Origin: Methanoregula sp.
GTDB taxonomy: Archaea; Halobacteriota; Methanomicrobia; Methanomicrobiales; Methanospirillaceae
Direction: 5' to 3'
Assembly (NCBI RefSeq): GCF_028679125.1
Contig: NZ_JAJRCG010000001.1
Span: forward strand, 186,001 to 250,000
Length of the DNA stretch: 64,000 nt
The translations under genes were made by a program, and so were the position numbers. The notes under the pieces are model-generated. The model did not search any database, was not told the origin of the DNA, and saw nothing but the letters and a program-made list of their open reading frames with translations. This document shows positions 4,747-60,516 of this stretch, piece after piece. The stretch's first letter is position 1, and each line of letters starts with the position of its first letter.

Positions 4747-5970
4747 TTATTTATTGATGTGCACGACTTTTGCCGGCGGGAAGCCGTTGAAGTACGTGGA
4801 CGAGGCATGGGAGTATGCCCCGATATTCTCCGAATACACGAGGTCGCCGATATCGAGATCGGGCAGCTCGGCCGAAAGGGTGATCGTGTCAAACGCATCG
4901 CAGGTCGGCCCGAACACTGCGGAGATCTGGGTCTCGCCTTTCTTGAACGCAAGGACCGGGTAATTGACATGATCGAAGACCTGCCCGGAGTACGTGTGGT
5001 AGACACCGTCGTTGATGTAGTAGCAGGGCTTGCCGTCGCGGATTGCCTTCCCTACCACCTTTGCAACGAGCGTGCAGGTGTTGGCAACCAGGAACCGGCC
5101 CGGTTCGGCAAGGATCTGCATATCGCTCGGGAAGAGCCGCTTTATCTCGGCGTTCAGTTTCCGTGCAAGCGTCCGGATGGACCGGATGCCGGGGTGGTAC
5201 TTCACCGGGAAACCCCCGCCGATATCGAGGATGCGGATCTTCCGGCCGGTCCGGTCTTCCACTTCCTTGATGATACTGGCCGAGATCTGGAGCGCCTGCA
5301 TGTAGTTCTCGAAGTTGGTGCACTGGCTTCCGACATGGAAGCTCAGGCCCTCGACAACCAGGCCGTTCTCGAATGCCTCGACGATCAGGTCTACGGCCTC
5401 GCCGGGGTGGGCGCCGAACTTGCTGGAGAGTTCCACCATGGAGCCCGTGTTCGGGACGCGGAGCCGGAGGACGAGTCCTGCATGGGGTGCATGGTCGCGG
5501 ATCTTCAGGATCTCGAAGTGGTTATCGAATGTAACGAGCGGTTTGTACTTGTCCAGCGCATTCAGGGTATCGATCGGCTTGATGGTGTTGGCATAGATGA
5601 TCTTGTCCCAGATGAACTCCTGCTGCTCTTTCTTGGGCAGGTGCTTGAAGTTCTCGTGCACGATCATGAACTCGGGCATTGACGCCACATCGAAACTGGA
5701 TCCGATGTCGTACAGGGTTTTGACGATCTCGGCATTGGAGTTGGCCTTGACCGCAAAATAGATCTGCACGTTGGGCAGGTGCTTGTGGAATTCCCGGTAA
5801 TTCTGCCGGATCTTCTCATGATCGATCACAAAAATAGGGGTGCCGTGCTCTGCAGCAAGGTCCAGCAGGTGTCTCTTCCCGCTGTGCCCGATATGGTGAA
5901 CGGGAGTGGGGACCTCTTCGGTCTCCTTTTTCTTCCGTCTCTTCTTGTTATCAACCGCGACTTTTGTCAT
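4747..5970 (-). CDS. PLP-dependent ornithine/lysine-type decarboxylase (fold III)
   Basis: 407 aa. The alanine-racemase-fold barrel has the PLP lysine in YFAVKANSN (about residue 75), HVGSQ, DIGGGFP, an EPGR motif (AEPGRFLVA) and the catalytic Cys in FGPTCDAFD near residue 350. The Cys-Asp signature fits ornithine/lysine decarboxylases better than diaminopimelate decarboxylases. A basic Lys/Arg-rich N-terminal extension of about 15 residues precedes the domain. It lies 12 bp downstream of a homospermidine synthase gene on the same strand, which supports a role in making putrescine for that enzyme. The exact substrate is inferred from this context. Confidence 0.8.
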   Translation of the reverse strand: MTKVAVDNKKRRKKKETEEVPTPVHHIGHSGKRHLLDLAAEHGTPIFVIDHEKIRQNYREFHKHLPNVQIYFAVKANSNAEIVKTLYDIGSSFDVASMPEFMIVHENFKHLPKKEQQEFIWDKIIYANTIKPIDTLNALDKYKPLVTFDNHFEILKIRDHAPHAGLVLRLRVPNTGSMVELSSKFGAHPGEAVDLIVEAFENGLVVEGLSFHVGSQCTNFENYMQALQISASIIKEVEDRTGRKIRILDIGGGFPVKYHPGIRSIRTLARKLNAEIKRLFPSDMQILAEPGRFLVANTCTLVAKVVGKAIRDGKPCYYINDGVYHTYSGQVFDHVNYPVLAFKKGETQISAVFGPTCDAFDTITLSAELPDLDIGDLVYSENIGAYSHASSTYFNGFPPAKVVHINK

Positions 5971-5982
5971 TATATGATTGAT

Positions 5983-7428
5983 TTACTGCACGAATAAGAA
6001 GTTTTTGAATTGCCAGATATCTTCGCGGTCATAATTGTTCTCCGGGTTCTCCTTGAAGTAGACCACGCGGTTCTTCATGGGTGTCCAGTCCGAGGGCCCC
6101 GACCAGAACTCCCCTAGGTAGGGGCGGGCAATATCGAGGACGAACTCGTGCGGCAGGTCGTCGGGCAGGCAGAATCCCTTCTTCGGGTTGTCGATCATCC
6201 ACATCACCGCGCTGACAACGCCGAGCGCTACCTGGATGGTGGTGGCGTTCTCGCCGGGTGCGAGTTTCTTGGCTTCGTCAATGGAGAGGATGCTCCCCGT
6301 CCACCAGGATTTGTAGGGATGCCCCATGAGGAGCGCACCGAGAATATCTGCACCGGAGACGATCTCCCGGTCGTTCAGGATGCGGAGCTTGGGCTGGAGG
6401 ACGTAATTCCTCGCCCGGAGCTCCTGGATGGACGCGATGGTGGCATCGCAGGGCATGTAGGCATAGTGGACGGTCGGGCGGTAGATGGCTTTGCCGTCCT
6501 TCCAGACGGTCCACCGGTCGGAGATACCGAATGCCTCCCCATGCCGGATCACCATGCCGATGATCTCCTGGTTGGGGATCCAGGACCGGACCCAGGTATT
6601 GATCCCCATCTTGGGGATCAGGATGCCGTTTTTGGGGCCGACCGGTGGCACGATGGCAAGGGGGGGCAGGGTCTTCTCGTGGGTGCCCCACCCGATCTCT
6701 GCCGGGGCGATCCCCTCTTCCCGGAGCCCCTCGATACACCAGGTCCCGACGAATTCCCCGACCTTCTTTGGGGACCGGGAGATCTGGGTGTCGTGCTCCG
6801 AACAGTGGATCACCTTGACGCCGACTTCCATGGCAAGTTCGGCGAAGTTCTGGTCCTGGATCAGCTGCTGTATCCGGTCCGGGTCCTTTGCGATCTTATC
6901 CTCGATCATCCGGTTGGCGATATCCACCAGGCCGTGCTTGGCAAAGTGCGAGATAAGACCCGGGTTTGCCCCGTGGTCCACGACGCAGGTCGTAGCATCA
7001 TCCTTCCAGTCCTTTGTCAGTTCCATGAGCCGCATCTGGCGGAAGTACAGGGTCTTCTCATACGGGCTTGCCGTGGCAGCGATGGCCTCGGGATCCCAGG
7101 CTTCCACGGACGTGTTGACGTAGAGGACATCGTGGTCATGGCACCACTGTACGACCTCGCAGCAGTCGATGTTCCACGCCTCGTCGATCAAGAGGCCGCC
7201 CGGGGTAAGATATTCGGAAAGGACTTTGCCAAGGTTTTCCTGGGTGATCTTCTGCTTGAAGAACCGGAGGCCTCGTGTGGTCCAGGCCTTGAGATCCGCT
7301 GATTTATCCTTGAAATCGAGGATGGTGATATTCTCCAGGGGAATGTTCACATGGCGGAGCAGGATCGGGAACATGCACTTGCAGACAGCACCATATCCGA
7401 TGATCAGAACCTTGTTTTTGAATTCCAC
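5983..7428 (-). CDS. hss: Homospermidine synthase
   Basis: 481 aa, the usual length for bacterial-type homospermidine synthases. It has an N-terminal NAD-binding Rossmann segment (VLIIGYGAV), VDHGANPGLISH near residue 150, WGTHEK in the middle and GEFVGTW and ENATT motifs, all typical of this saccharopine-dehydrogenase-related family. The enzyme condenses two putrescines (or putrescine and spermidine) to sym-homospermidine in an NAD-dependent reaction. The start is a GTG at 7428 with GGGAGG upstream. It is followed by a decarboxylase gene, giving a two-gene polyamine operon. In most archaea polyamines come from agmatine and dcAdoMet, so this route is notable. Confidence 0.85.
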   Translation of the reverse strand: MEFKNKVLIIGYGAVCKCMFPILLRHVNIPLENITILDFKDKSADLKAWTTRGLRFFKQKITQENLGKVLSEYLTPGGLLIDEAWNIDCCEVVQWCHDHDVLYVNTSVEAWDPEAIAATASPYEKTLYFRQMRLMELTKDWKDDATTCVVDHGANPGLISHFAKHGLVDIANRMIEDKIAKDPDRIQQLIQDQNFAELAMEVGVKVIHCSEHDTQISRSPKKVGEFVGTWCIEGLREEGIAPAEIGWGTHEKTLPPLAIVPPVGPKNGILIPKMGINTWVRSWIPNQEIIGMVIRHGEAFGISDRWTVWKDGKAIYRPTVHYAYMPCDATIASIQELRARNYVLQPKLRILNDREIVSGADILGALLMGHPYKSWWTGSILSIDEAKKLAPGENATTIQVALGVVSAVMWMIDNPKKGFCLPDDLPHEFVLDIARPYLGEFWSGPSDWTPMKNRVVYFKENPENNYDREDIWQFKNFLFVQ

Positions 7429-9198: not shown

Positions 9199-10526
9199 TG
9201 CTCGACGGCCTCTCCTCATCCCTCAAGGACGCGCTCAAGAAACTCGCCGGCAAGTCGGTGGTTGACCGGGCAGCGGTCGATGAACTGATCAAGGATCTCC
9301 AGCGGGCGCTGATCTCATCGGATGTCAACGTCAAGCTCGTCATGGAGCTCAGCAAGGCGATCCGTACCCGTTCGCTTGATGAGGAACCGCCCAAGGGCAT
9401 GAACGTCCGCGAGCACGTGCTCCGCATCGTGTACCAGGAACTGGTACGGCTCATCTGGGCATCGAGCGATGTCCGGCTTGAACCCCAGACCATCCTGATG
9501 GCGGGTCTCCAGGGGAGCGGCAAGACCACGACCACGGCAAAGCTCGCCCGTTACTTCCAGAAGAAGGGCATGAAAGTCGGGGTCATTTGTGCTGATACGT
9601 TCCGGCCCGGTGCCTATGACCAGATCTCCACGCTCTGTGCGAAGATCAATGTTCCCTGTTTTGGCAATCCGCAGGAGAAGGATGCCTTAAAGATCACCCG
9701 CGAGGGGCTTGCAGCATTAAAAGAGCAGGAACTGATCATCGTTGATACGCAGGGCCGGCACGCGCTGGAAGCCGATCTCATCCAGGAGATCATCGACCTC
9801 AATGTCCTGACAAAGGCGACCCACCGCTGGCTCGTGATAGACGCAGCACTGGGCCAGCAGGCGAGCGAGCAGGCAAAACGGTTCCACGAAGCGATCGGGA
9901 TCGACGGGGTCATCATCACCAAGATGGACGGCACTGCAAAAGGCGGTGGCGCCATGTCGGCCGTTGCCGAGACCAAGAGCGGGATCGCGTTCATCGGCAG
10001 CGGGGAGACGATCGAGGATCTCGAACGGTTCGATCCCGACGGGTTCATCTCCCGGCTGCTCGGCATGGGGGACTTAAAGGCCCTCATGGAGAAGGCGAAC
10101 GAAGCGATCAACCCCGGGGACGTTGATGTCAACGCGATGATGAAGGGGAAGTTCACCCTCCGCGATATGTACAAACAGCTCGAAGCCCTGAACAAGATGG
10201 GCCCCTTAAAGCAGATCATGGGGATGCTCCCGCTCGGGAACATGCAGCTGCCCGAGGGCGTGTATGATGTCACCAGCACGAAGATGGTCCGGTACCGGAT
10301 CATCATGGACTCGATGACGCCGGGCGAACTCGACGACCCGGCACTCATCAACAGTTCCCGCATGCAGCGGATCGCCCACGGGGCGGGCGCCACGCCCGAC
10401 GAGGTCAGGGAACTGATCAAGTACTACAAGATGATGCAGCGGACGCTCAAGGGGCTGCGGGGCGGCCAGGGTGGCGGAAAGTTCAACATGCAGCGCCTGA
10501 TGAAACGCTTCTCCGGAATGCAGTGA
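9198..10526 (+). CDS. srp54: Signal recognition particle protein SRP54
   Basis: 442 aa. It has the N domain (1-90), the G domain with [10 protein letters not shown] (P loop), [11 protein letters not shown] (G4) and GSGE, and a Met-rich M domain from about 300 to the end that binds 7S RNA and signal sequences. The G3 motif reads DTQGRH, with Gln where DTAGR is usual; ftsY next door keeps DTAGR. It recognises signal sequences as they leave the ribosome. The stop is followed after one base by the ATG of trmY. Confidence 0.96.
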
Positions 10527-54881: not shown

Positions 54882-54987
54882 CCCGCCTTAACTCAGCCTG
54901 GTAGAGTGCGCGGCTGTAGTATGGTTTGCCGATTCAGGCAACTGCGCGGCTACCGCGATGTCCCCGGTTCGAATCTGGGAGGCGGGA
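54882..54987 (+). tRNA. tRNA-Tyr (GUA anticodon) with 32-nt intron
   Basis: Acceptor CCCGCCT/AGGCGGG and a D-arm with CTCAGCCTGGTAGAG. Anticodon stem CGCGG/CCGCG encloses CTGTAG, then an intron at 54,920-54,951 after position 37, then A. The T-arm is CCCGG-TTCGAAT-CTGGG. The intron end can pair with the anticodon loop in a bulge-helix-bulge-like way (4 bp with two wobbles). The discriminator is A. An AT-rich TTTAATA box at about 54,844 is the likely promoter. Confidence 0.85.
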
Positions 54988-55000
54988 TTACTGTAAAATT

Positions 55001-55073
55001 GCCCAGGTAGTGTAGTGGCCTATCATGATTGCCTGTCACGCAATCGACTCGGATTCGAATTCCGACCTGGGCG
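55001..55073 (+). tRNA. tRNA-Asp (GUC anticodon), element integration target
   Basis: Acceptor GCCCAGG/CCTGGGC, anticodon stem ATTGC-GCAAT enclosing CTGTCAC, T-arm TCGGA-TTCGAAT-TCCGA. It is 14 bp after tRNA-Tyr. Its 3' part from 55,031 is repeated exactly at the right end of the integrated element, which leaves this gene intact after integration. Confidence 0.93.
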
Positions 55074-55415
55074 TCCACCTTTTAGGGATTCTTCAGTAGA
55101 GTAAGGATCTTTTTTATTTTCGTTAGGTTTACACTCACCGTTCTGTGCATCTACGAGGGCACGAGATATATCAGAGTTAGGGCTTTCAGCGCTAGTGTTT
55201 AAACTTGGTGTAAACTGCTCCTTTTGTGAAGCGTCCAATGCATTAGGCTTGGATTCAGAATCTAATGATATATAGAAAACATTGCCGTTTTTGTAAATAG
55301 TGATGGGCTTACCAATCAATGATTCATCGTAACTCCAAGGGAACTGCACATAGGGCGCTACATATCCCTGTTTTGGACTCATACGTTTTACCTTCGTTTG
55401 GCAGATTAAATCCAT
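55023..55415 (-). CDS. Integrase N-terminal fragment, int(N)
   Basis: 130 codons, of which the first 128 are shared with the rebuilt integrase. The ATG at 55,415 overlaps the stop of the serine recombinase by one base (TAATG), so it is translationally coupled. The sequence (QGYVAPYVQFPWSYDESLIGKP) is not a known fold; a Ser/Asn-rich linker follows. It reads into the att core as RPGRNSNPSRLRDR and stops two codons beyond, in the tRNA gene. In the circle it would continue into the int(C) reading frame. Confidence 0.8.
   Translation of the reverse strand: MDLICQTKVKRMSPKQGYVAPYVQFPWSYDESLIGKPITIYKNGNVFYISLDSESKPNALDASQKEQFTPSLNTSAESPNSDISRALVDAQNGECKPNENKKDPYSTEESLKGGRPGRNSNPSRLRDRQS
55031..55074. 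repeat. attL core (44 bp) within tRNA-Asp
   Basis: Exact 44-bp direct repeat of 60,473-60,516. It runs from the anticodon stem to one base past the tRNA 3' end. It is also read, on the minus strand, as the end of the integrase N-terminal fragment. Confidence 0.9.
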
Positions 55416-55990
55416 TACATCACCTTTTGTTTACGTCTGATTAACGTCACATATGGGACATCGATCTTTTCAGCAATCTCCTTGTAGTTCATTCCCTCTT
55501 TGTGAAGAAGATCAACATACTTCCAATCGATTTCTTTGAAGGGTCTCCCGCAATGTTTCCCCTCATCCCTAGCTCTTTGCATTCCAACCTTTGTCCTCTC
55601 AATAAGGTTCTCCCTCTCTCGTTGAGCACACCACGCCATAACAGAGATAATTAGTTGGCGAATGGATGGATCACAATTTAGCCACGTCTCGTTTGGGGAA
55701 ATTGATTGAACACAGACACCGAGTCTGTCAAAGTCTCGTATTACATTAAGAGTGTCTGTAAGATCTCTCGCTAGACGTGAAAGCTCATAGATGTAAAGAT
55801 GAGTGGCATTATTCTCTTTGATGAAGTCCATCATCTTTTGGAATCCCTTACGTTCATACGGAGATATAGATCCAGAGATCCCAACATCTTGGAATATGTG
55901 TTTTCTCTCAACACCTTTCGCTAACAATTCCTGGATCTGATTTTGCTCATGTTCTGTAGCAAGAGAAGTTCGAACATACCCTATTATCAT
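55415..55990 (-). CDS. Serine recombinase (resolvase/invertase family)
   Basis: 191 aa. The catalytic Ser9 lies in GYVRTSLATEHEQNQ. DVGISGSISPYERKGFQ, LYIYELSRLARDLTD with its conserved Arg, and the E-helix CAQRERENLIERTKVGMQRARDEGKHCGR (residues about 125-153) follow, then a Hin-like HTH (NYKEIAEKIDVPYVTLIRR). Family members resolve multimers or invert DNA. Its presence alongside a tyrosine integrase in so small an element is notable; it may resolve replicating circles. Confidence 0.88.
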   Translation of the reverse strand: MIIGYVRTSLATEHEQNQIQELLAKGVERKHIFQDVGISGSISPYERKGFQKMMDFIKENNATHLYIYELSRLARDLTDTLNVIRDFDRLGVCVQSISPNETWLNCDPSIRQLIISVMAWCAQRERENLIERTKVGMQRARDEGKHCGRPFKEIDWKYVDLLHKEGMNYKEIAEKIDVPYVTLIRRKQKVM

Positions 55991-56504
55991 AAAGCACCCT
56001 TATAGTAACTAGAAGGAGATCTTAGTATAAAGCTTTACCGGCCAAAAATGAGTTATCGCAAACGAACCCTTGTGATCATCATAATGTCAAAAGTAGATCT
56101 CTACAAGACCCTAATAAGCACTTATTAGCACTGAATCATGTTTGATTGATAGAAATGTGCAACAGGAAAAATGAAATTCCTAGCAGAGCCTTATTACGCT
56201 ATTACAGCCCCTAAACTCAAAATAAAGGGCGAATTAGATAGTTTTATGTTGTAATAAAACAAATACTACCTAGACAATTTTTCTGGTTCGTGTTTTAAGT
56301 AACATCATTTTTCGATAGCCTTGGCTCTTTCCTTCGGTAAAATCTCCGAACAATAGCACCGCGTATCGACTTTTATTTTTAACCACGTCGCTAGAAGGGC
56401 ACAGGTGAGAGGGATGTAAGGTATGGTATGTGTAGCGGAGGCTATTGAGTTATTTTCATTTTGTATTGTCAGTTGAAAAAATCCAATCTAATAATGTGAT
56501 TTAA
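55991..56504. other. AT-rich intergenic region of the element, with palindromes
   Basis: No gene in 514 bp between divergent serine recombinase and ATPase genes. A perfect palindrome CTAATAAG-CA-CTTATTAG is at 56,111-56,128, and GTTTTAT-6 nt-ATAAAAC at 56,241-56,260. These are candidate operators, recombination (res-like) sites or part of an origin. Promoters for both flanking operons must also be here. Confidence 0.55.
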
Positions 56505-57788
56505 ATGAGTGAAAAGATAGACGAAAAAGCATGTAAAACTAGTGACGTTCATACGTCAACAAATTCAGGTATCGAAGAAGAAGCTATGAAGATTCTCCGA
56601 GGTGGAAATCCTATTGATTATATTATGAAAGAGTACAATCGGATTCACGTTGGGGATAAAGAGTTAGGTGAGTTCTTATTAACGACAATCGGCTGCTCGC
56701 TCTGTGCCAATACGGATGGATTACAACCAGATCTATCTGGTGAGAGTGGAAAAGGCAAGAGTGATGCATGTAAGGCAATGGGATCCTTGGTGCCACAAGA
56801 GTATTTTAATAAGGGCAGTCGTTCTGCAATGGCACTCTTCTATACAGATGGACTAAAGGCTGGCTCCATTATTTTTATGGACGATGTCGAAAGTTTCTCT
56901 CAAAAGGAGGAAAGCATCCTGAAGGTGGCTACTTCACAATATCAGGAGGCTTTCGAACATTCATATACCGACATTAACCAGAAAGGGGCCAATAAGGGTC
57001 GCAAGGTTAGCCTACCCCCGAGACAGTCCTTTTGGATTACAAGCGTAAGCTCATCTTTCGATCCCCAAGTTTTAAATCGTTGTATCAAACTGCATGTCGA
57101 CGAGAGCAAAGAGCAAGATGAGGCGGTGTTTACTAGGCAAAAGGATGCAGCCAGAACGGGATCTTATCGTGCATCATTAACGCATGAGACATTAGTTTGT
57201 CGCGCAATGATCAAGCATCTGAAAGAATTGGAGCTCGTAAATGTGAGCATCCCATTTGTTGATAATATCCAATGGCACGATTATTCGAATAGACGTAACT
57301 TCCCTATGTTCTGTGATATTGTCAGAGCATTCGCAGCGGTAAACCAGTATCAACGAGCCACGAATGAGGAACGTTATCTGATTGCAGATTTGGATGATTT
57401 TGATCGTGCTGCGAATTTGTGGTCAACAATTGATAAGGCACAAAGTACGGGTCTCACTAAAGACGAACAAACGGTATTGTCTGCTATCCCCAGGTCAGAT
57501 AATAAAGGGATCTCACAGTCGCAACTGGCAATCCAATGCAACAAGAATAAAGGATCGATATTCCGAGCATTATTCGGAATCAAGCAGCCAGATAAATCAT
57601 ACAAAGGTGGACTGATGAACAAAGTTCCAGGAATTGACTATAATTCCGATGAGCGGATATTTCGATATAACGGGACACTTCTCTCATCTGAGACCAAGGT
57701 CTCATTAATCAATAGAGATGAGATTGAGAAATGTTGCACAAGGTTGCATACAGTTACAACCCCAATGCAACCAGTTTTATCGACGTGA
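56505..57788 (+). CDS. P-loop ATPase, replication helicase-like
   Basis: 427 aa. Walker A GESGKGKS at 79-86, Walker B IIFMDD near 122-127, a polar sensor-like segment FWITSVSSSFDPQVLNRCI near 185, and a C-terminal winged-helix-like stretch (ISQSQLAIQCNKNKGSIFRALF). This layout is similar to AAA+/SF3-like replicative ATPases of archaeal plasmids and viruses. No primase domain is seen. The first gene of the rightward block, probably the replication protein of the element. The last 60 bases contain part of the GTTGCA repeat cluster. Confidence 0.6.
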   Translation: MSEKIDEKACKTSDVHTSTNSGIEEEAMKILRGGNPIDYIMKEYNRIHVGDKELGEFLLTTIGCSLCANTDGLQPDLSGESGKGKSDACKAMGSLVPQEYFNKGSRSAMALFYTDGLKAGSIIFMDDVESFSQKEESILKVATSQYQEAFEHSYTDINQKGANKGRKVSLPPRQSFWITSVSSSFDPQVLNRCIKLHVDESKEQDEAVFTRQKDAARTGSYRASLTHETLVCRAMIKHLKELELVNVSIPFVDNIQWHDYSNRRNFPMFCDIVRAFAAVNQYQRATNEERYLIADLDDFDRAANLWSTIDKAQSTGLTKDEQTVLSAIPRSDNKGISQSQLAIQCNKNKGSIFRALFGIKQPDKSYKGGLMNKVPGIDYNSDERIFRYNGTLLSSETKVSLINRDEIEKCCTRLHTVTTPMQPVLST

Positions 57789-58610
57789 AATATAAAAAGT
57801 TGCATGATTATCAGAATCATAATTAGTTAAATAAATTGTAATATGAGTGATAATGAACGAATTCTTTCATCTTGATCGAAGTAAAAAACTTACCTCTGGA
57901 AAAATACTCACCTGCGATTCAAACTATGATGATTGTGAATCTTGGGTTGTTACAGATCTTTTTGAAAAAAATGACTTAATCCGTTTGATTAATGATTTAT
58001 ACCCTAATGGATTAACAGAACACGGGAAAAAATACCTATTAGAGCAAGGACTTATCATAAAAGGTCTAGTCTTCGAATACAAATCTCTTATAAAAAGTGA
58101 TCAAATTACAGGCCTTGAAATCGGCAATCAGATATGTAATATCCCTAGAGGGCCTGCACAATTCATTCATAACATACCGATAATTGAATTAACATTTGAA
58201 CTTATTCGCAGAATGGAGTTTCCACAACTCCCCTCAAGATTTCAGTCGATCTTCGGTTGGAGCACACTTAATGAAGCTAAAGCATTTCGGGAAACACACG
58301 GAAATGGTGAATCCGATATCTATTCTGTGAAATGCGAAGAGTGTATCAAAGTTGATATGAATTTATTATTAATGGGCGGCAGCCCGATTGGAAGCATCAT
58401 CCTAGCAAGAAAATATTGGAGTGGGGAGGCAGGGAATAATCCAAGATGGGAAATTCTAATGAAACCTCCTGTTTACATAATCCACAAAGTAGAGTGAGTT
58501 ATTATACAATGAAATTATGCAACTTTTACTTATTTTTATAAAACCTATCTCGTAAAAATGTCTTGAGATCTAGTTGCAATGCCCATGCAACTCAATGTAA
58601 CTAATGCAAC
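57733..58610. repeat. GTTGCA/TGCAAC repeat cluster (iteron-like)
   Basis: The hexamer occurs at 57,733, 57,743, 57,766 (inverted), 57,799, 58,518 (inverted), 58,573, 58,586 (inverted) and 58,605 (inverted), with one-mismatch copies GTTACA at 57,753 and TGTAAC at 58,596. Several are spaced by 9-10 bp, one helical turn. The group flanks the DUF2441-like gene and includes the gene-free 58,498-58,943. This looks like binding sites for a replication or regulatory protein. Confidence 0.6.
57853..58497 (+). CDS. DUF2441-like protein
   Basis: 214 aa from the ATG giving MNEFFHLDRS. The segment FPQLPSRFQSIFGWSTLNEAKAFR (about 124-147), and the ending with a W-containing hydrophobic strand (PRWEILMKPPVYIIH), resemble DUF2441, a family linked to ADP-ribosyltransferase-like folds. 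The match is from memory of the pattern and not certain. It sits between two iteron-like repeat groups. Function unknown; could be an accessory or toxin-type cargo protein. Confidence 0.4.
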   Translation: MNEFFHLDRSKKLTSGKILTCDSNYDDCESWVVTDLFEKNDLIRLINDLYPNGLTEHGKKYLLEQGLIIKGLVFEYKSLIKSDQITGLEIGNQICNIPRGPAQFIHNIPIIELTFELIRRMEFPQLPSRFQSIFGWSTLNEAKAFRETHGNGESDIYSVKCEECIKVDMNLLLMGGSPIGSIILARKYWSGEAGNNPRWEILMKPPVYIIHKVE

Positions 58611-58943
58611 TATCAGAGTTAAAAAAAACCAATAAGTATCAATAATGTATTTACGGCGGATTATGGCAAAAAATGTGTTTGACAAATGTCGGCTAAATAA
58701 TAAGCAAGTGCCTATGCAAAATTATGAGAAAAAATCAACTTTCTGACGTAAAGTTGAATATATGAGTACAATTTTGATCTATGCGTATAGTTTTTTGTAT
58801 GCACATGAAAAAGTCCACGCAAATTTAAGTTTTTGGAAAATGAGGGGCAATAGCTCAATATTTTATACTCCATTTTATGAATTAAAGTTACATTCCAAGT
58901 AAAAAGCAAAACGTATATCGGATATTGATATGATGTTTTCATC

Positions 58944-59549
58944 ATGGGTTTTTTTGGAGATCTCTTAACAAAATTGAACAGCATCCCAGAAAAGTCGGTG
59001 AGTGCAGAGGAGGCGCAGAAATCATTTGAGGCTAACATATTCTTTGCGAAAACTTGTTTTGAGAGGGGTGAGTCTGATTCTGGACTCGGATTTCTTAACA
59101 TGGCTATGCTAGACAATCCGAACTGCATCACGATATTGAATAATCAAGGTATTTTATCATTAAATGAAGGCGATGATGAAGAAGCTCTTGTTTTTTTTGA
59201 TATGACACTTGCGCTCTCTCCAAAATATTCTGATGTGTGGCGTTATCGAGGAGAGGCTTTACAAAACCTTGATCGTTATGCAGAAGCGGTTGCATCATAC
59301 GATAAGGCTATTTCAATAAATCCTAACGACGAAAACTCGTGGAATAATAGGGGAGTTGCACTATTAGATCTTGGAATGAATAATGAAGCTTTATCATCAT
59401 ATGAACAAGCCATTACCCTCAATCCAAATTTTGCTTTGGCTTGGAATAACCGAGGAAATCTGTTACGGCATTTTGGAAGAGATAAAGAGGCGGAGGTCTC
59501 ATACAAAACGGCAATAGATATCCACAAAAAGCAGATAAACTCTAGATAA
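58944..59549 (+). CDS. TPR-repeat protein
   Basis: 201 aa. After a variable N-terminus (1-28) come about five tetratricopeptide units: the clear ones show WRYRGEALQNLDRYAEAVASYDKAISINPN, WNNRGVALLDLGMNNEALSSYEQAITLNPN and WNNRGNLLRHFGRDKEAEVSYKTAI at roughly 95-195. It is a protein-binding scaffold. The gene converges with int(C) with 9 bp between; its own 5' spacer of about 450 bp is gene-free. Confidence 0.85.
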   Translation: MGFFGDLLTKLNSIPEKSVSAEEAQKSFEANIFFAKTCFERGESDSGLGFLNMAMLDNPNCITILNNQGILSLNEGDDEEALVFFDMTLALSPKYSDVWRYRGEALQNLDRYAEAVASYDKAISINPNDENSWNNRGVALLDLGMNNEALSSYEQAITLNPNFALAWNNRGNLLRHFGRDKEAEVSYKTAIDIHKKQINSR

Positions 59550-59558
59550 GACCCTCTC

Positions 59559-60485
59559 TCAAATTATTTTGATCGGCTCCCAACACTCTATATACCTTTT
59601 ATAGACATTCTCTGGCAAGAATTGCTTATACGACGTCCAATTAATCGAACTCACTCCGTGACTCATTATAAAGTTCTTATTAGCATCCACGAACCCAACT
59701 TCATCGCTCTTCTGCTCGAAGAATTTGCGCAGGTCTCTTTGCTGAAGGTTTCCCTTTGTGTGACTCATGGAAATTGGGTGATGCTTAAACCATCTCTGCA
59801 AGCCAAGATAATCAAAGACCAAATTATCCTCCTTTTTTCCTGTGACGATCTTCTCAATAAGAGGAATAAGCACGGGATGTAACGGAACATAATGAGCCAT
59901 TCGGATCTTATCCTGCTCTGCCTCCACAGTTAGCACTGGTGGATTATGGTTAAGAGCATCCTTGAATTGGCTTACCGTTAATCTGGATGCGGTTATTGTT
60001 CTTTGACCTGAATACGAGAGAAATAGTATCGACGATTGATAGTTCTGTTTCTTGACATTTGTTAACTCTGAATCATTTGCTATGGCATTCAGTGCCTTCT
60101 CAATGTCCTCTTGAATGATAATCCTAGAAGTGAGTAACTTGATTGGCTGTTTGTTCTTGGGCCTTTCAAAGATAGAATGGTAAGATAGAATTTTAGGATT
60201 CATCGTGAGTTTATAGAGGTAATTGAAGAATGCGCGCGTGTAATTGAAACACTTCTCTAGGGCTGATGTGCTCTTGCATTTTGTGATAAAGAAGTCTGAC
60301 AAATTACCAAGTGTCGCTGTATTGATTACACCGTTTAGTATTGCCCATATCTCCGAACCTACTTTCTTGATAATGTTCACTGTGTTTCTGTTAATCCCTC
60401 TTGAACGATATCTCACAAAACTGTCTAATTCTTCTTGGGTAAAATAAACCCAATTTGAATCTTGATCATCGAGCCTGTCACGCAA
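59559..60485 (-). CDS. Tyrosine integrase C-terminal fragment, int(C)
   Basis: 308 codons open from the att core; a TTG inside the core (60,485) is the only start-like codon, so this fragment may not be expressed. The core-binding part is at about 20-100. The catalytic domain has R162 in SGQRTITASRL, a basic beta-hairpin before YVPLHP, R253 in RDLRKFF, H276 in MSHG and a Tyr at 295-298 (VYKRYIE). These match the R..K..HxxR..H/W..Y layout. The reading frame matches int(N) across the core. A full-length protein would be about 432 aa. Confidence 0.85.
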   Translation of the reverse strand: MRDRLDDQDSNWVYFTQEELDSFVRYRSRGINRNTVNIIKKVGSEIWAILNGVINTATLGNLSDFFITKCKSTSALEKCFNYTRAFFNYLYKLTMNPKILSYHSIFERPKNKQPIKLLTSRIIIQEDIEKALNAIANDSELTNVKKQNYQSSILFLSYSGQRTITASRLTVSQFKDALNHNPPVLTVEAEQDKIRMAHYVPLHPVLIPLIEKIVTGKKEDNLVFDYLGLQRWFKHHPISMSHTKGNLQQRDLRKFFEQKSDEVGFVDANKNFIMSHGVSSINWTSYKQFLPENVYKRYIECWEPIKII

Positions 60486-60516
60486 TCGACTCGGATTCGA
60501 ATTCCGACCTGGGCGT
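60473..60516. repeat. attR core (44 bp)
   Basis: Exact duplicate of the tRNA-Asp 3' segment 55,031-55,074. It marks the right border of the element; host sequence resumes after 60,516. It also encodes the first residues shared with int(N). Confidence 0.9.

What the first reader, a model, noticed from the sequence alone, without database searches (positions are those of the whole stretch)
55023..60516. A 5.4-kb tRNA-Asp element with an SSV-type split integrase
Seen: an exact 44-bp repeat of the tRNA-Asp 3' half at 55,031 and 60,473. On the minus strand, one reading frame crosses the left copy from an N-terminal fragment and another crosses the right copy into a tyrosine-recombinase catalytic domain. 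Both read the core in the same frame (RPGRNSNPSRLRDR), so excision would fuse them into one ~432-aa gene. Known: SSV-type integrases are interrupted by their own integration in this way. Inference: this element integrated by that mechanism and cannot re-express full integrase unless excised.
Basis: partly seen in the sequence, partly recalled or inferred. Interest (0 to 1): 0.85.

Follow-up and report, generated by a model that had tools for sequence, protein, structure and literature searches.

The report
Self-splitting integrase element in tRNA-Asp
A small mobile element sits in a tRNA gene of a methane-making archaeon and appears to have cut its own integrase gene in two when it inserted; its integrase lies on a branch apart from the best-known self-splitting enzymes, yet shares its detachable front half with them.

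Summary
An exact 44-bp copy of the tRNA-Asp 3' half flanks a 5,442-bp element. On the minus strand an N-terminal fragment (IntN) and a tyrosine-recombinase fragment (IntC) read both copies in one frame. Eight of eight undecayed elements of this lineage, window included, do so, in tRNA-Asp, -Glu and -Val; one decayed relative does not. Eleven same-genus tRNA-Asp loci show neither half in the stretch held. The host is Methanoregula-like.

It works like an SSV-type ("suicidal") integrase but does not pass as a member of the SSV/pT26-2 (PF16795) family. IntC has no PF16795 match, and its lineage (profile matches in 44 of 294 phylum genomes) clusters apart from SSV and pT26-2 integrases, with weak distant links.

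Unexpected: homologous IntN modules (up to 56% identity) are joined, at tRNA-antisense att codons, both to this lineage and to PF16795 catalytic domains. In two pairs checked within the lineage IntN is the faster-changing half, so sharing points to module exchange at the att. How hybrids arise (tandem integration?) is inferred.

The parts
55000..55077 (+). tRNA-Asp(GTC), intact, remade at the left junction; its last bases (CCA, 55075-55077) lie on the element side of the core
   Evidence: ARAGORN; none of the 13 other same-genus tRNA-Asp copies shown is followed by CCA
55031..55074 (.). left att core, 44 bp
   Evidence: exact direct repeat
55023..55415 (-). IntN: N-terminal integrase module plus att codons; reads antisense into the tRNA and stops two codons past the core
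   Evidence: ORF; homologous modules in 9 further of 199 genomes, in 7 of those 9 next to or over a tRNA gene; same-frame test
55415..55990 (-). small serine recombinase (resolvase); its stop codon overlaps the IntN start (TAATG)
   Evidence: PF00239 3.4e-31; 57% identical protein in the tRNA-Glu element of G041
56505..57788 (+). 427-aa protein, P-loop-like by eye, perhaps part of a replication protein (inference)
   Evidence: no Pfam or PHROG match at E<=0.01; relatives in 115 of 199 genomes, own included; 53% identical in the G021 element
57847..58497 (+). protein with DUF2441
   Evidence: PF10386 2.2e-7; phrog_5663 3.1e-38, unknown function
58944..59549 (+). tetratricopeptide-repeat protein
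   Evidence: PF00515 4e-32
59559..60516 (-). IntC: att codons plus tyrosine-recombinase catalytic domain, cut off from its start
   Evidence: PHROG integrase matches; AlphaFold model pLDDT 81 matching Tn1549 Int, XerA, lambda Int; conserved R172, K203, R263 and a tyrosine near the end
60473..60516 (.). right att core, 44 bp (tRNA fragment)
   Evidence: exact direct repeat

Best explanation
This is a 5.4-kb integrated element, plasmid-like, with no recognised virus gene. As a circle it would carry one ~432-aa tyrosine integrase whose attP is codons ~115-128, read antisense to a tRNA. Recombination with the 3' half of tRNA-Asp remakes the tRNA and parts the gene: IntN stays behind the resolvase gene and runs into the tRNA, and IntC is left at the far end without its start. 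[Geometry shown; circle and reaction inferred.] The catalytic domain belongs to a lineage found in several families of the phylum, here called the A lineage, which is distinct from the PF16795 (SSV, pT26-2) lineage but does the same thing. The IntN module is exchangeable between the two lineages, with the tRNA-derived att as the seam. [Shared module shown; route inferred.] Excision would need a full-length integrase from a relative, or from a hybrid gene remade at the inner att of a tandem array. [Inferred.]
For: Exact 44-bp repeat and same-frame halves. Same phase and open in 8 of 8 undecayed A-lineage elements, window included. Tyrosine-recombinase fold. Eleven same-genus tRNA-Asp loci hold no IntN or IntC in the stretch fetched (0.9 to 8.2 kb past the tRNA), while the same profiles ring in the occupied loci L113 and L120. 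In G018 the HTH gene that follows the window's element starts 322 bp after the tRNA; the window's right flank aligns to the G018 and G036 3' flanks (0 and 1 of 500 shuffles). Best BLAST E between A-lineage groups is <=2.3e-30 and between the PF16795, SSV and pT26-2 groups <=3.9e-19; across the two sets the best outside the att peptide is 6e-6, over 90 aa. IntN of L044 (A) and G130 (PF16795) are 56% identical over 96 aa (9e-35 in a 14-sequence set), while A and PF16795 IntC frames of 13 elements reach no better than E 0.004.
Against: No circle and no empty-site strain of the same species was seen. The flank match is short and T-rich: the G018 flank also scores against the element's left flank (2 of 500 shuffles), and 7 of 10 flanks tested show no clear match to the right flank. 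The two lineages are distant kin: a profile of 22 PF16795-lineage proteins reaches the G041/G056/G086 group at 2.6e-10 and the window's own group at best 8.7e-5 (62 sequences, filters off), and at G289:C38 and G385:C8 one place is hit by both profiles. One origin of self-splitting is therefore not excluded. The IntN tree is poorly resolved and its starred branches do not rule out one change. Of the 44 genomes with an A-profile match, the weakest (E 1e-7 to 3e-5) may be other recombinases.
Confidence: 0.9

Rival explanations
1. It is simply an ordinary SSV/pT26-2 (PF16795) family integrase that has diverged, with a single origin of self-splitting and nothing separate about the lineage.
For: Same att geometry as SSV1, whose 44-bp site lies inside int. 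Weak matches: PF16795 to G041 IntC at 0.0029 and G056 at 0.05, both below the cut-off; PF16795-lineage profile to the G041/G056/G086 group at 2.6e-10 and to the window's group at best 8.7e-5; two places hit by both profiles (G289:C38, G385:C8); hhalign with SSV aligns the R...Y region, E 0.076 but probability 0.7%.
Against: No PF16795 match in the window IntC at E<=10 or in its genome at E<=0.001. Two-cluster structure. Both lineages occur at separate loci in the same genomes, e.g. G263 and G285.
Confidence: 0.2
2. The halves are dead leftovers: the element is a decaying relic whose integrase never acts again.
For: IntC has no ATG near its start. Decayed relatives exist: L040 with stops, and an 80-aa IntC remnant elsewhere in the own genome.
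Against: The window's att cores are identical, both half-frames are open, and cargo ORFs are intact.
Confidence: 0.25
3. IntN and IntC are separate working proteins after integration, for example IntN as a regulator (a free-standing IntN-like protein lies next to IntN in G021) or both halves acting together.
For: L113 4456-4815(-) is a stand-alone IntN-like protein directly upstream of IntN. The review (passages) mentions trans-complementation suggesting a role for Int(C) in excision by an outside integrase.
Against: The same review (passages) reports that SSV2 halves did not interact in solution without DNA and that several truncated integrases were inactive in vitro. IntN runs into tRNA sequence.
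Confidence: 0.1
4. Chance repeat and unrelated ORFs.
For: None found.
Against: 44 of 44 identical bases; same-phase pattern repeated at three tRNA types in other genomes.
Confidence: 0.01

Closest known systems
SSV1 integrase (Fuselloviridae)
   Same: 44-bp integration site inside the int gene, early in the reading frame (record annotation); IntC would carry the catalytic domain
   Different: PF16795 and PF07935 domains in SSV1, neither in the window halves; BLAST between SSV integrases and the group that holds the window no better than E 0.34
pT26-2 / pGE2 integrases (Thermococcales plasmids)
   Same: self-splitting att in the 3' part of various tRNAs (PMC6972569 passages; PMC8371274 passages)
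   Different: pT26-2 matches PF16795-lineage proteins of the phylum (5e-68); best match to the A lineage is 0.001, with the G041-type group; different N-terminal part by eye
   Same: IntN module homologous to that of the window's lineage, joined at tRNA att codons
   Different: catalytic domain of the other lineage
fam30-08 of the 2021 classification (no Pfam domain detected, spread over classes or phyla)
   Same: lack of a Pfam match and wide spread would fit
   Different: identity could not be checked (supplementary files not readable here); the passages seen do not call it self-splitting

Membership tests
SSV-type / type I / suicidal integrases (mechanistic class) | attP lies within the int reading frame; integration leaves int(N) and int(C) | tested here: met
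   same-frame halves at both cores; 8 of 8 undecayed A-lineage elements, window included. The unsplit form itself was not seen
SSV-type / type I / suicidal integrases (mechanistic class) | att of about 40-50 bp from the 3' part of a tRNA gene, tRNA remade | tested here: met
   44 bp, tRNA-Asp intact; relatives 42-45 bp in tRNA-Glu and -Val
SSV-type / type I / suicidal integrases (mechanistic class) | full-length enzyme integrates and excises; halves alone do not | not testable with these tools
   needs enzyme assays or circle reads
SSV / pTN3 / pT26-2 integrase family | PF16795 (Phage_integr_3) catalytic domain, as the 2021 review states for all three | tested here: not met
   no PF16795 hit for window IntC at E<=10 (HMMER filters on), none in the own genome at E<=0.001; weak link only with a custom profile
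SSV / pTN3 / pT26-2 integrase family | full-length sequence similarity to known members | tested here: not met
   two clusters; SSV and pT26-2 tested; pTN3 not available
SSV integrases | PF07935 N-terminal domain | tested here: not met
   present in SSV1; not among the hits of IntN at E<=10
Tyrosine recombinases (superfamily) | catalytic fold with R, K, R and a tyrosine nucleophile | tested here: met
   Foldseek hits to Tn1549 Int 5.3e-5, XerA 3.7e-4, lambda Int 9.2e-4, with low whole-chain TM-scores of 0.3-0.4; R172, K203, R263 invariant; Y296 in 15 of the 16 rows that reach it. Which tyrosine is the nucleophile is not shown; residue roles are recalled

The most novel reading that the evidence does not exclude
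Self-splitting integration is a modular system with at least two deeply parted catalytic lineages that trade one IntN module through the tRNA-derived att. The seam is the att itself: when two elements integrate in tandem in one tRNA, the inner core joins the IntN of one to the IntC of the other in frame. That remakes a full-length, hybrid integrase, undoes the 'suicide' and shuffles specificity. At tRNA-Val, A-lineage (L043, L044, G121) and PF16795 (G227, G252, G312) elements read the att in the same frame (IRT.D..RV[KR]A), so in-frame hybrids are possible. G252 has three identical 46-bp cores in a row (a tandem), and G312 has a full-length 442-aa integrase at the outer core of an element that still has its own, different IntN at the tRNA. 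Against it: in G252 no IntN module stands before the inner core; in G312 no third core lies within about 78 kb on that side; and G130, whose IntN is the closest to an A-lineage one, reads its tRNA-Val att in another frame.
Probability: 0.35. Interest if true: 0.75.

Novelty: new variant of a known kind. Interest (0 to 1): 0.52.

Why it matters
The 2021 review of archaeal tyrosine recombinases suggests that self-splitting integrases arose once and ties them to PF16795. Here a second catalytic lineage that Pfam does not recognise, found in methanogens and other families of the phylum, does the same and shares the detachable front half. If right, the att is not only a target site but the joint at which integrases are rebuilt. 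That would help explain how elements that destroy their own integrase persist and change tRNA target.

Tried and rejected
Viral origin: no relative of IntC or of the 427-aa protein was found in the viral contigs, by searches that rest on a few short peptide patterns. Among phage records the 427-aa protein had no match and IntC only two weak Pseudomonas phage hits (E 0.1). Plasmid records gave nothing for IntC. A viral origin is not excluded.

IntN fold: the model had mean pLDDT 50, and Pfam gave nothing over its cut-off for ten IntN modules. An AbrB-like look was considered and not claimed.

Role of the 427-aa protein: no Pfam match at E<=0.01, nor for one of its ~1,050-aa relatives; PDB sequences gave only AAA proteins at E 0.15 or worse. 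Replication is a guess.

Independent origin of self-splitting: considered, not supported either way.

Tandem regeneration: G252 and G312 inspected; suggestive, incomplete.

G019's second split integrase (tRNA-Thr, contigs C41 and C21) has an odd layout, with a whole tRNA beside IntC, and was left unresolved.

Print searches. No listed title or abstract start speaks of self-splitting integrases in Methanoregula or Methanomicrobiales; the papers behind those listings were not read, except three opened in part (PMC8371274, PMC6972569, PMC2237900). The review's Table 1, in a passage seen, lists Methanosarcinales in brackets for the pT26-2 family. The primary 2020 paper on deep-sea archaeal suicidal integrases (title recalled) was not among the four held papers that use the term.

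Full report
WHAT IS THERE. The window is part of a 2.67-Mb, 33-contig genome (G000). An exact 44-bp repeat, 55031-55074 and 60473-60516, is the only direct-repeat family of at least 16 nt reported in 52-63 kb. The left copy is the 3' part of an intact tRNA-Asp(GTC). Between them lie, in order: IntN (-), a small serine recombinase (-), a 427-aa protein (+), a DUF2441 protein (+), a TPR protein (+) and IntC (-). The resolvase stop and the IntN start overlap (TAATG), so in a circle the resolvase and the whole integrase could form one transcription unit (read; inference).

THE SPLIT READING HOLDS. Both cores are read RPGRNSNPSRLRDR on the minus strand. I looked for the same in relatives. Of 25 fetched loci searched for a second copy of a tRNA part, six had one that I tested. 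A seventh (L126, 36 bp) was not followed, and the other 18 showed none in the stretch held. Five of the six (L113 = G021, tRNA-Asp, 10.1 kb; L031 = G041, tRNA-Glu, 8.3 kb; L033 = G056, tRNA-Glu, 6.3 kb; L043, tRNA-Val, 5.1 kb; L044, tRNA-Val, 6.2 kb) have identical cores and both half-frames open in the same phase. The sixth (L040, tRNA-Thr) is decayed, with unequal cores and stops. G019 has the two junctions on two contigs, again in the same frame, and G121 (L240, tRNA-Val, 14.8 kb) was added later. Counting the window this is 8 of 8 undecayed elements of the lineage.

EMPTY SITES. A match to the tRNA pair is present in 183 of 199 genomes. I fetched eleven same-genus loci besides the occupied ones (L114-L119, L128-L132). 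The window's IntN and IntC find nothing there by tblastn. Because that IntN query also missed the divergent IntN of G019, I repeated the test with profiles: IntN, A-lineage and PF16795-lineage profiles find nothing in the eleven, while IntN rings in L113 and L120 and the A-lineage profile in L113. The stretches reach 0.9 kb (L128) to 8.2 kb past the tRNA, and ten of the eleven hold a single copy of the core (L128 has a variant core). In G018 the HTH gene that follows the window's element starts 322 bp after the tRNA. The window's right flank aligns to the 3' flank in G018 (0 of 500 shuffles) and G036 (1 of 500), less in G029 (17 of 500), and not clearly in the seven other flanks tested. The G018 flank also scores, less well, against the element side (2 of 500), so this boundary evidence is modest.

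WHAT THE ENZYME IS. IntC has no Pfam match at E<=0.01 and no PF16795 match at E<=10. PHROGs gives integrase. The AlphaFold model (pLDDT 81.3) matches Tn1549 integrase, XerA and lambda Int by Foldseek. In a 17-row alignment R172, K203 and R263 are invariant, and Y296 is present in 15 of the 16 rows that reach it. Relatives occur in 21 of 199 genomes, own included, by single sequence and in 44 of 294 genomes of the phylum by profile; the weakest of these may be other recombinases. PF16795 rings in 84 of 294 (69 over the cut-off). The seven same-genus genomes named in that output, own included, have no match.

TWO CATALYTIC LINEAGES. I compared 62 integrases: 31 A-lineage, 22 PF16795 from the phylum, 7 fuselloviral and 2 Thermococcales plasmid. 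The best BLAST hits between A-lineage groups are all E<=2.3e-30, and those among the PF16795, SSV and pT26-2 groups all <=3.9e-19. Across the two sets 12 of 15 group pairs have a best hit above 0.001. The exceptions are 8e-8 (tRNA-derived att peptide only), 6e-6 (G086 type, 90 aa) and 0.001. Profiles see a little more: the PF16795-lineage profile reaches the G041/G056/G086 group at 2.6e-10 and the window's group at best 8.7e-5, and two places are hit by both genome searches (G289:C38, G385:C8). So distant kinship is likely and the window is not close to PF16795.

SHARED FRONT HALF. An IntN profile from ten A-type IntN modules hits the N-terminus of an intact PF16795 integrase in G312 (1.1e-17); the next of 229 test frames is at 0.23. 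By genome search IntN-like modules are in 49 of 294 genomes. Using the part of the lists that I entered by hand (70 IntN, 60 PF16795 and 31 A-lineage rows), 24 IntN rows lay within 30 kb of a PF16795 row: 19 in the order left by integration, 2 in intact-gene order, 3 on opposite strands. For the A lineage it was 12 (window included, some elements counted twice): 9, 1 and 2. Of 12 such loci fetched, 8 had a tRNA-linked repeat of at least 28 bp. In 6 of those both halves were open in the same phase (L233, L236, L237, L238 and L244 with PF16795; L240 with the A lineage), and in L234 and L239 they were not. L235, L241, L242 and L243 had no such repeat. IntN of L044 (A) and G130 (PF16795) are 56% identical over 96 aa (9e-35), and 27 of 48 A-by-PF16795 pairs reach E<1e-6 (14 sequences). 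The IntC frames of 13 of these 14 elements (G019 left out) never do better than 0.004 across lineages, although within each lineage all pairs are <=2e-22. L043 and L044 are 48% identical in IntN and 62% in IntC; the window and G021 are 47% and 80%. In these two pairs IntN is the faster part. Shared vertical descent would therefore not be expected to leave IntN alike and IntC unalike, and exchange is the simpler reading. Inside the genus, the IntN of G019 is too unlike the window's for tblastn, though the IntN profile finds it, while its IntC is 81% identical. The IntN tree itself is weak: A is mixed with PF16795, three changes, but starred branches force only one.

HOW EXCHANGE MIGHT HAPPEN. 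In a tandem of two elements at one tRNA, the inner core would carry IntN of the outer element and IntC of the inner one in one frame. G252 has three identical 46-bp cores (at the tRNA, +15.8 kb and +23.5 kb), with a PF16795 IntC beside the second and the third, but no recognisable IntN module before the second. G312 has a complete 442-aa integrase across the outer core of an element whose own, different IntN is at the tRNA, but no third core within about 78 kb on that side. G130 reads its tRNA-Val att in another frame than the A-lineage tRNA-Val elements, which such a hybrid would not easily explain. This is suggestive only. The review describes a related idea, chimeric integrases from homologous recombination between elements within the pT26-2 family (PMC8371274, section 31 read).

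WHAT IS KNOWN. PMC8371274 (section 9, part 1 of 2, and section 31 read; passages elsewhere) ties self-splitting integrases to SSV, pTN3 and pT26-2 with PF16795 and suggests one event. PMC6972569 (passages) gives tRNA 3'-end att sites for pT26-2 elements. A family without Pfam domain (fam30-08) is named in the review and might be the A lineage; I could not check. pTN3 itself was not available.

VERDICT. Observation confirmed, mechanism well supported, family label corrected. The new part is the second lineage and the shared IntN module.

Noticed in passing
window 54886-54989 (+): An intron-containing tRNA directly before tRNA-Asp, not reported by ARAGORN in default mode; in relatives intron mode labels it Asn or Asp, by eye it looks like Tyr.
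   Followed up: partly
L113 4456-4815 (-), G021 element: A free-standing IntN-like protein directly upstream of IntN, where the window has the serine resolvase; possibly a regulator or a leftover of a module swap.
   Followed up: no
L036 (G000:C18) 9683-9925 and L025 (G027:C45) 5735-6235: IntC remnants within about 1.3 kb of a tRNA-Lys in the own genome and in a relative, so related elements may also have used tRNA-Lys.
   Followed up: no
L121 926-1312 and L024 9721-10728 (G019): A second split integrase apparently aimed at tRNA-Thr, with a complete tRNA-Thr beside IntC and, by eye, only the 5' part of it behind IntN: a layout that the simple model does not give.
   Followed up: partly
genomes G199, G208, G217, G226, G234, G240, G246 (one genus, family f7): Eight A-lineage integrase matches in each (all that were scored) and up to 20 IntN-like modules in one genome: an unusual load of such elements, many broken.
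   Followed up: no
window 55075-55077: The integrated element supplies an encoded CCA to the tRNA-Asp; the eleven element-free same-genus copies shown lack it, as do the two other occupied ones.
   Followed up: no
window 56505-57788: The 427-aa protein resembles part of ~1000-aa proteins present in up to 8 listed copies per genome (115 of 199 genomes); one such relative has no Pfam match.
   Followed up: partly
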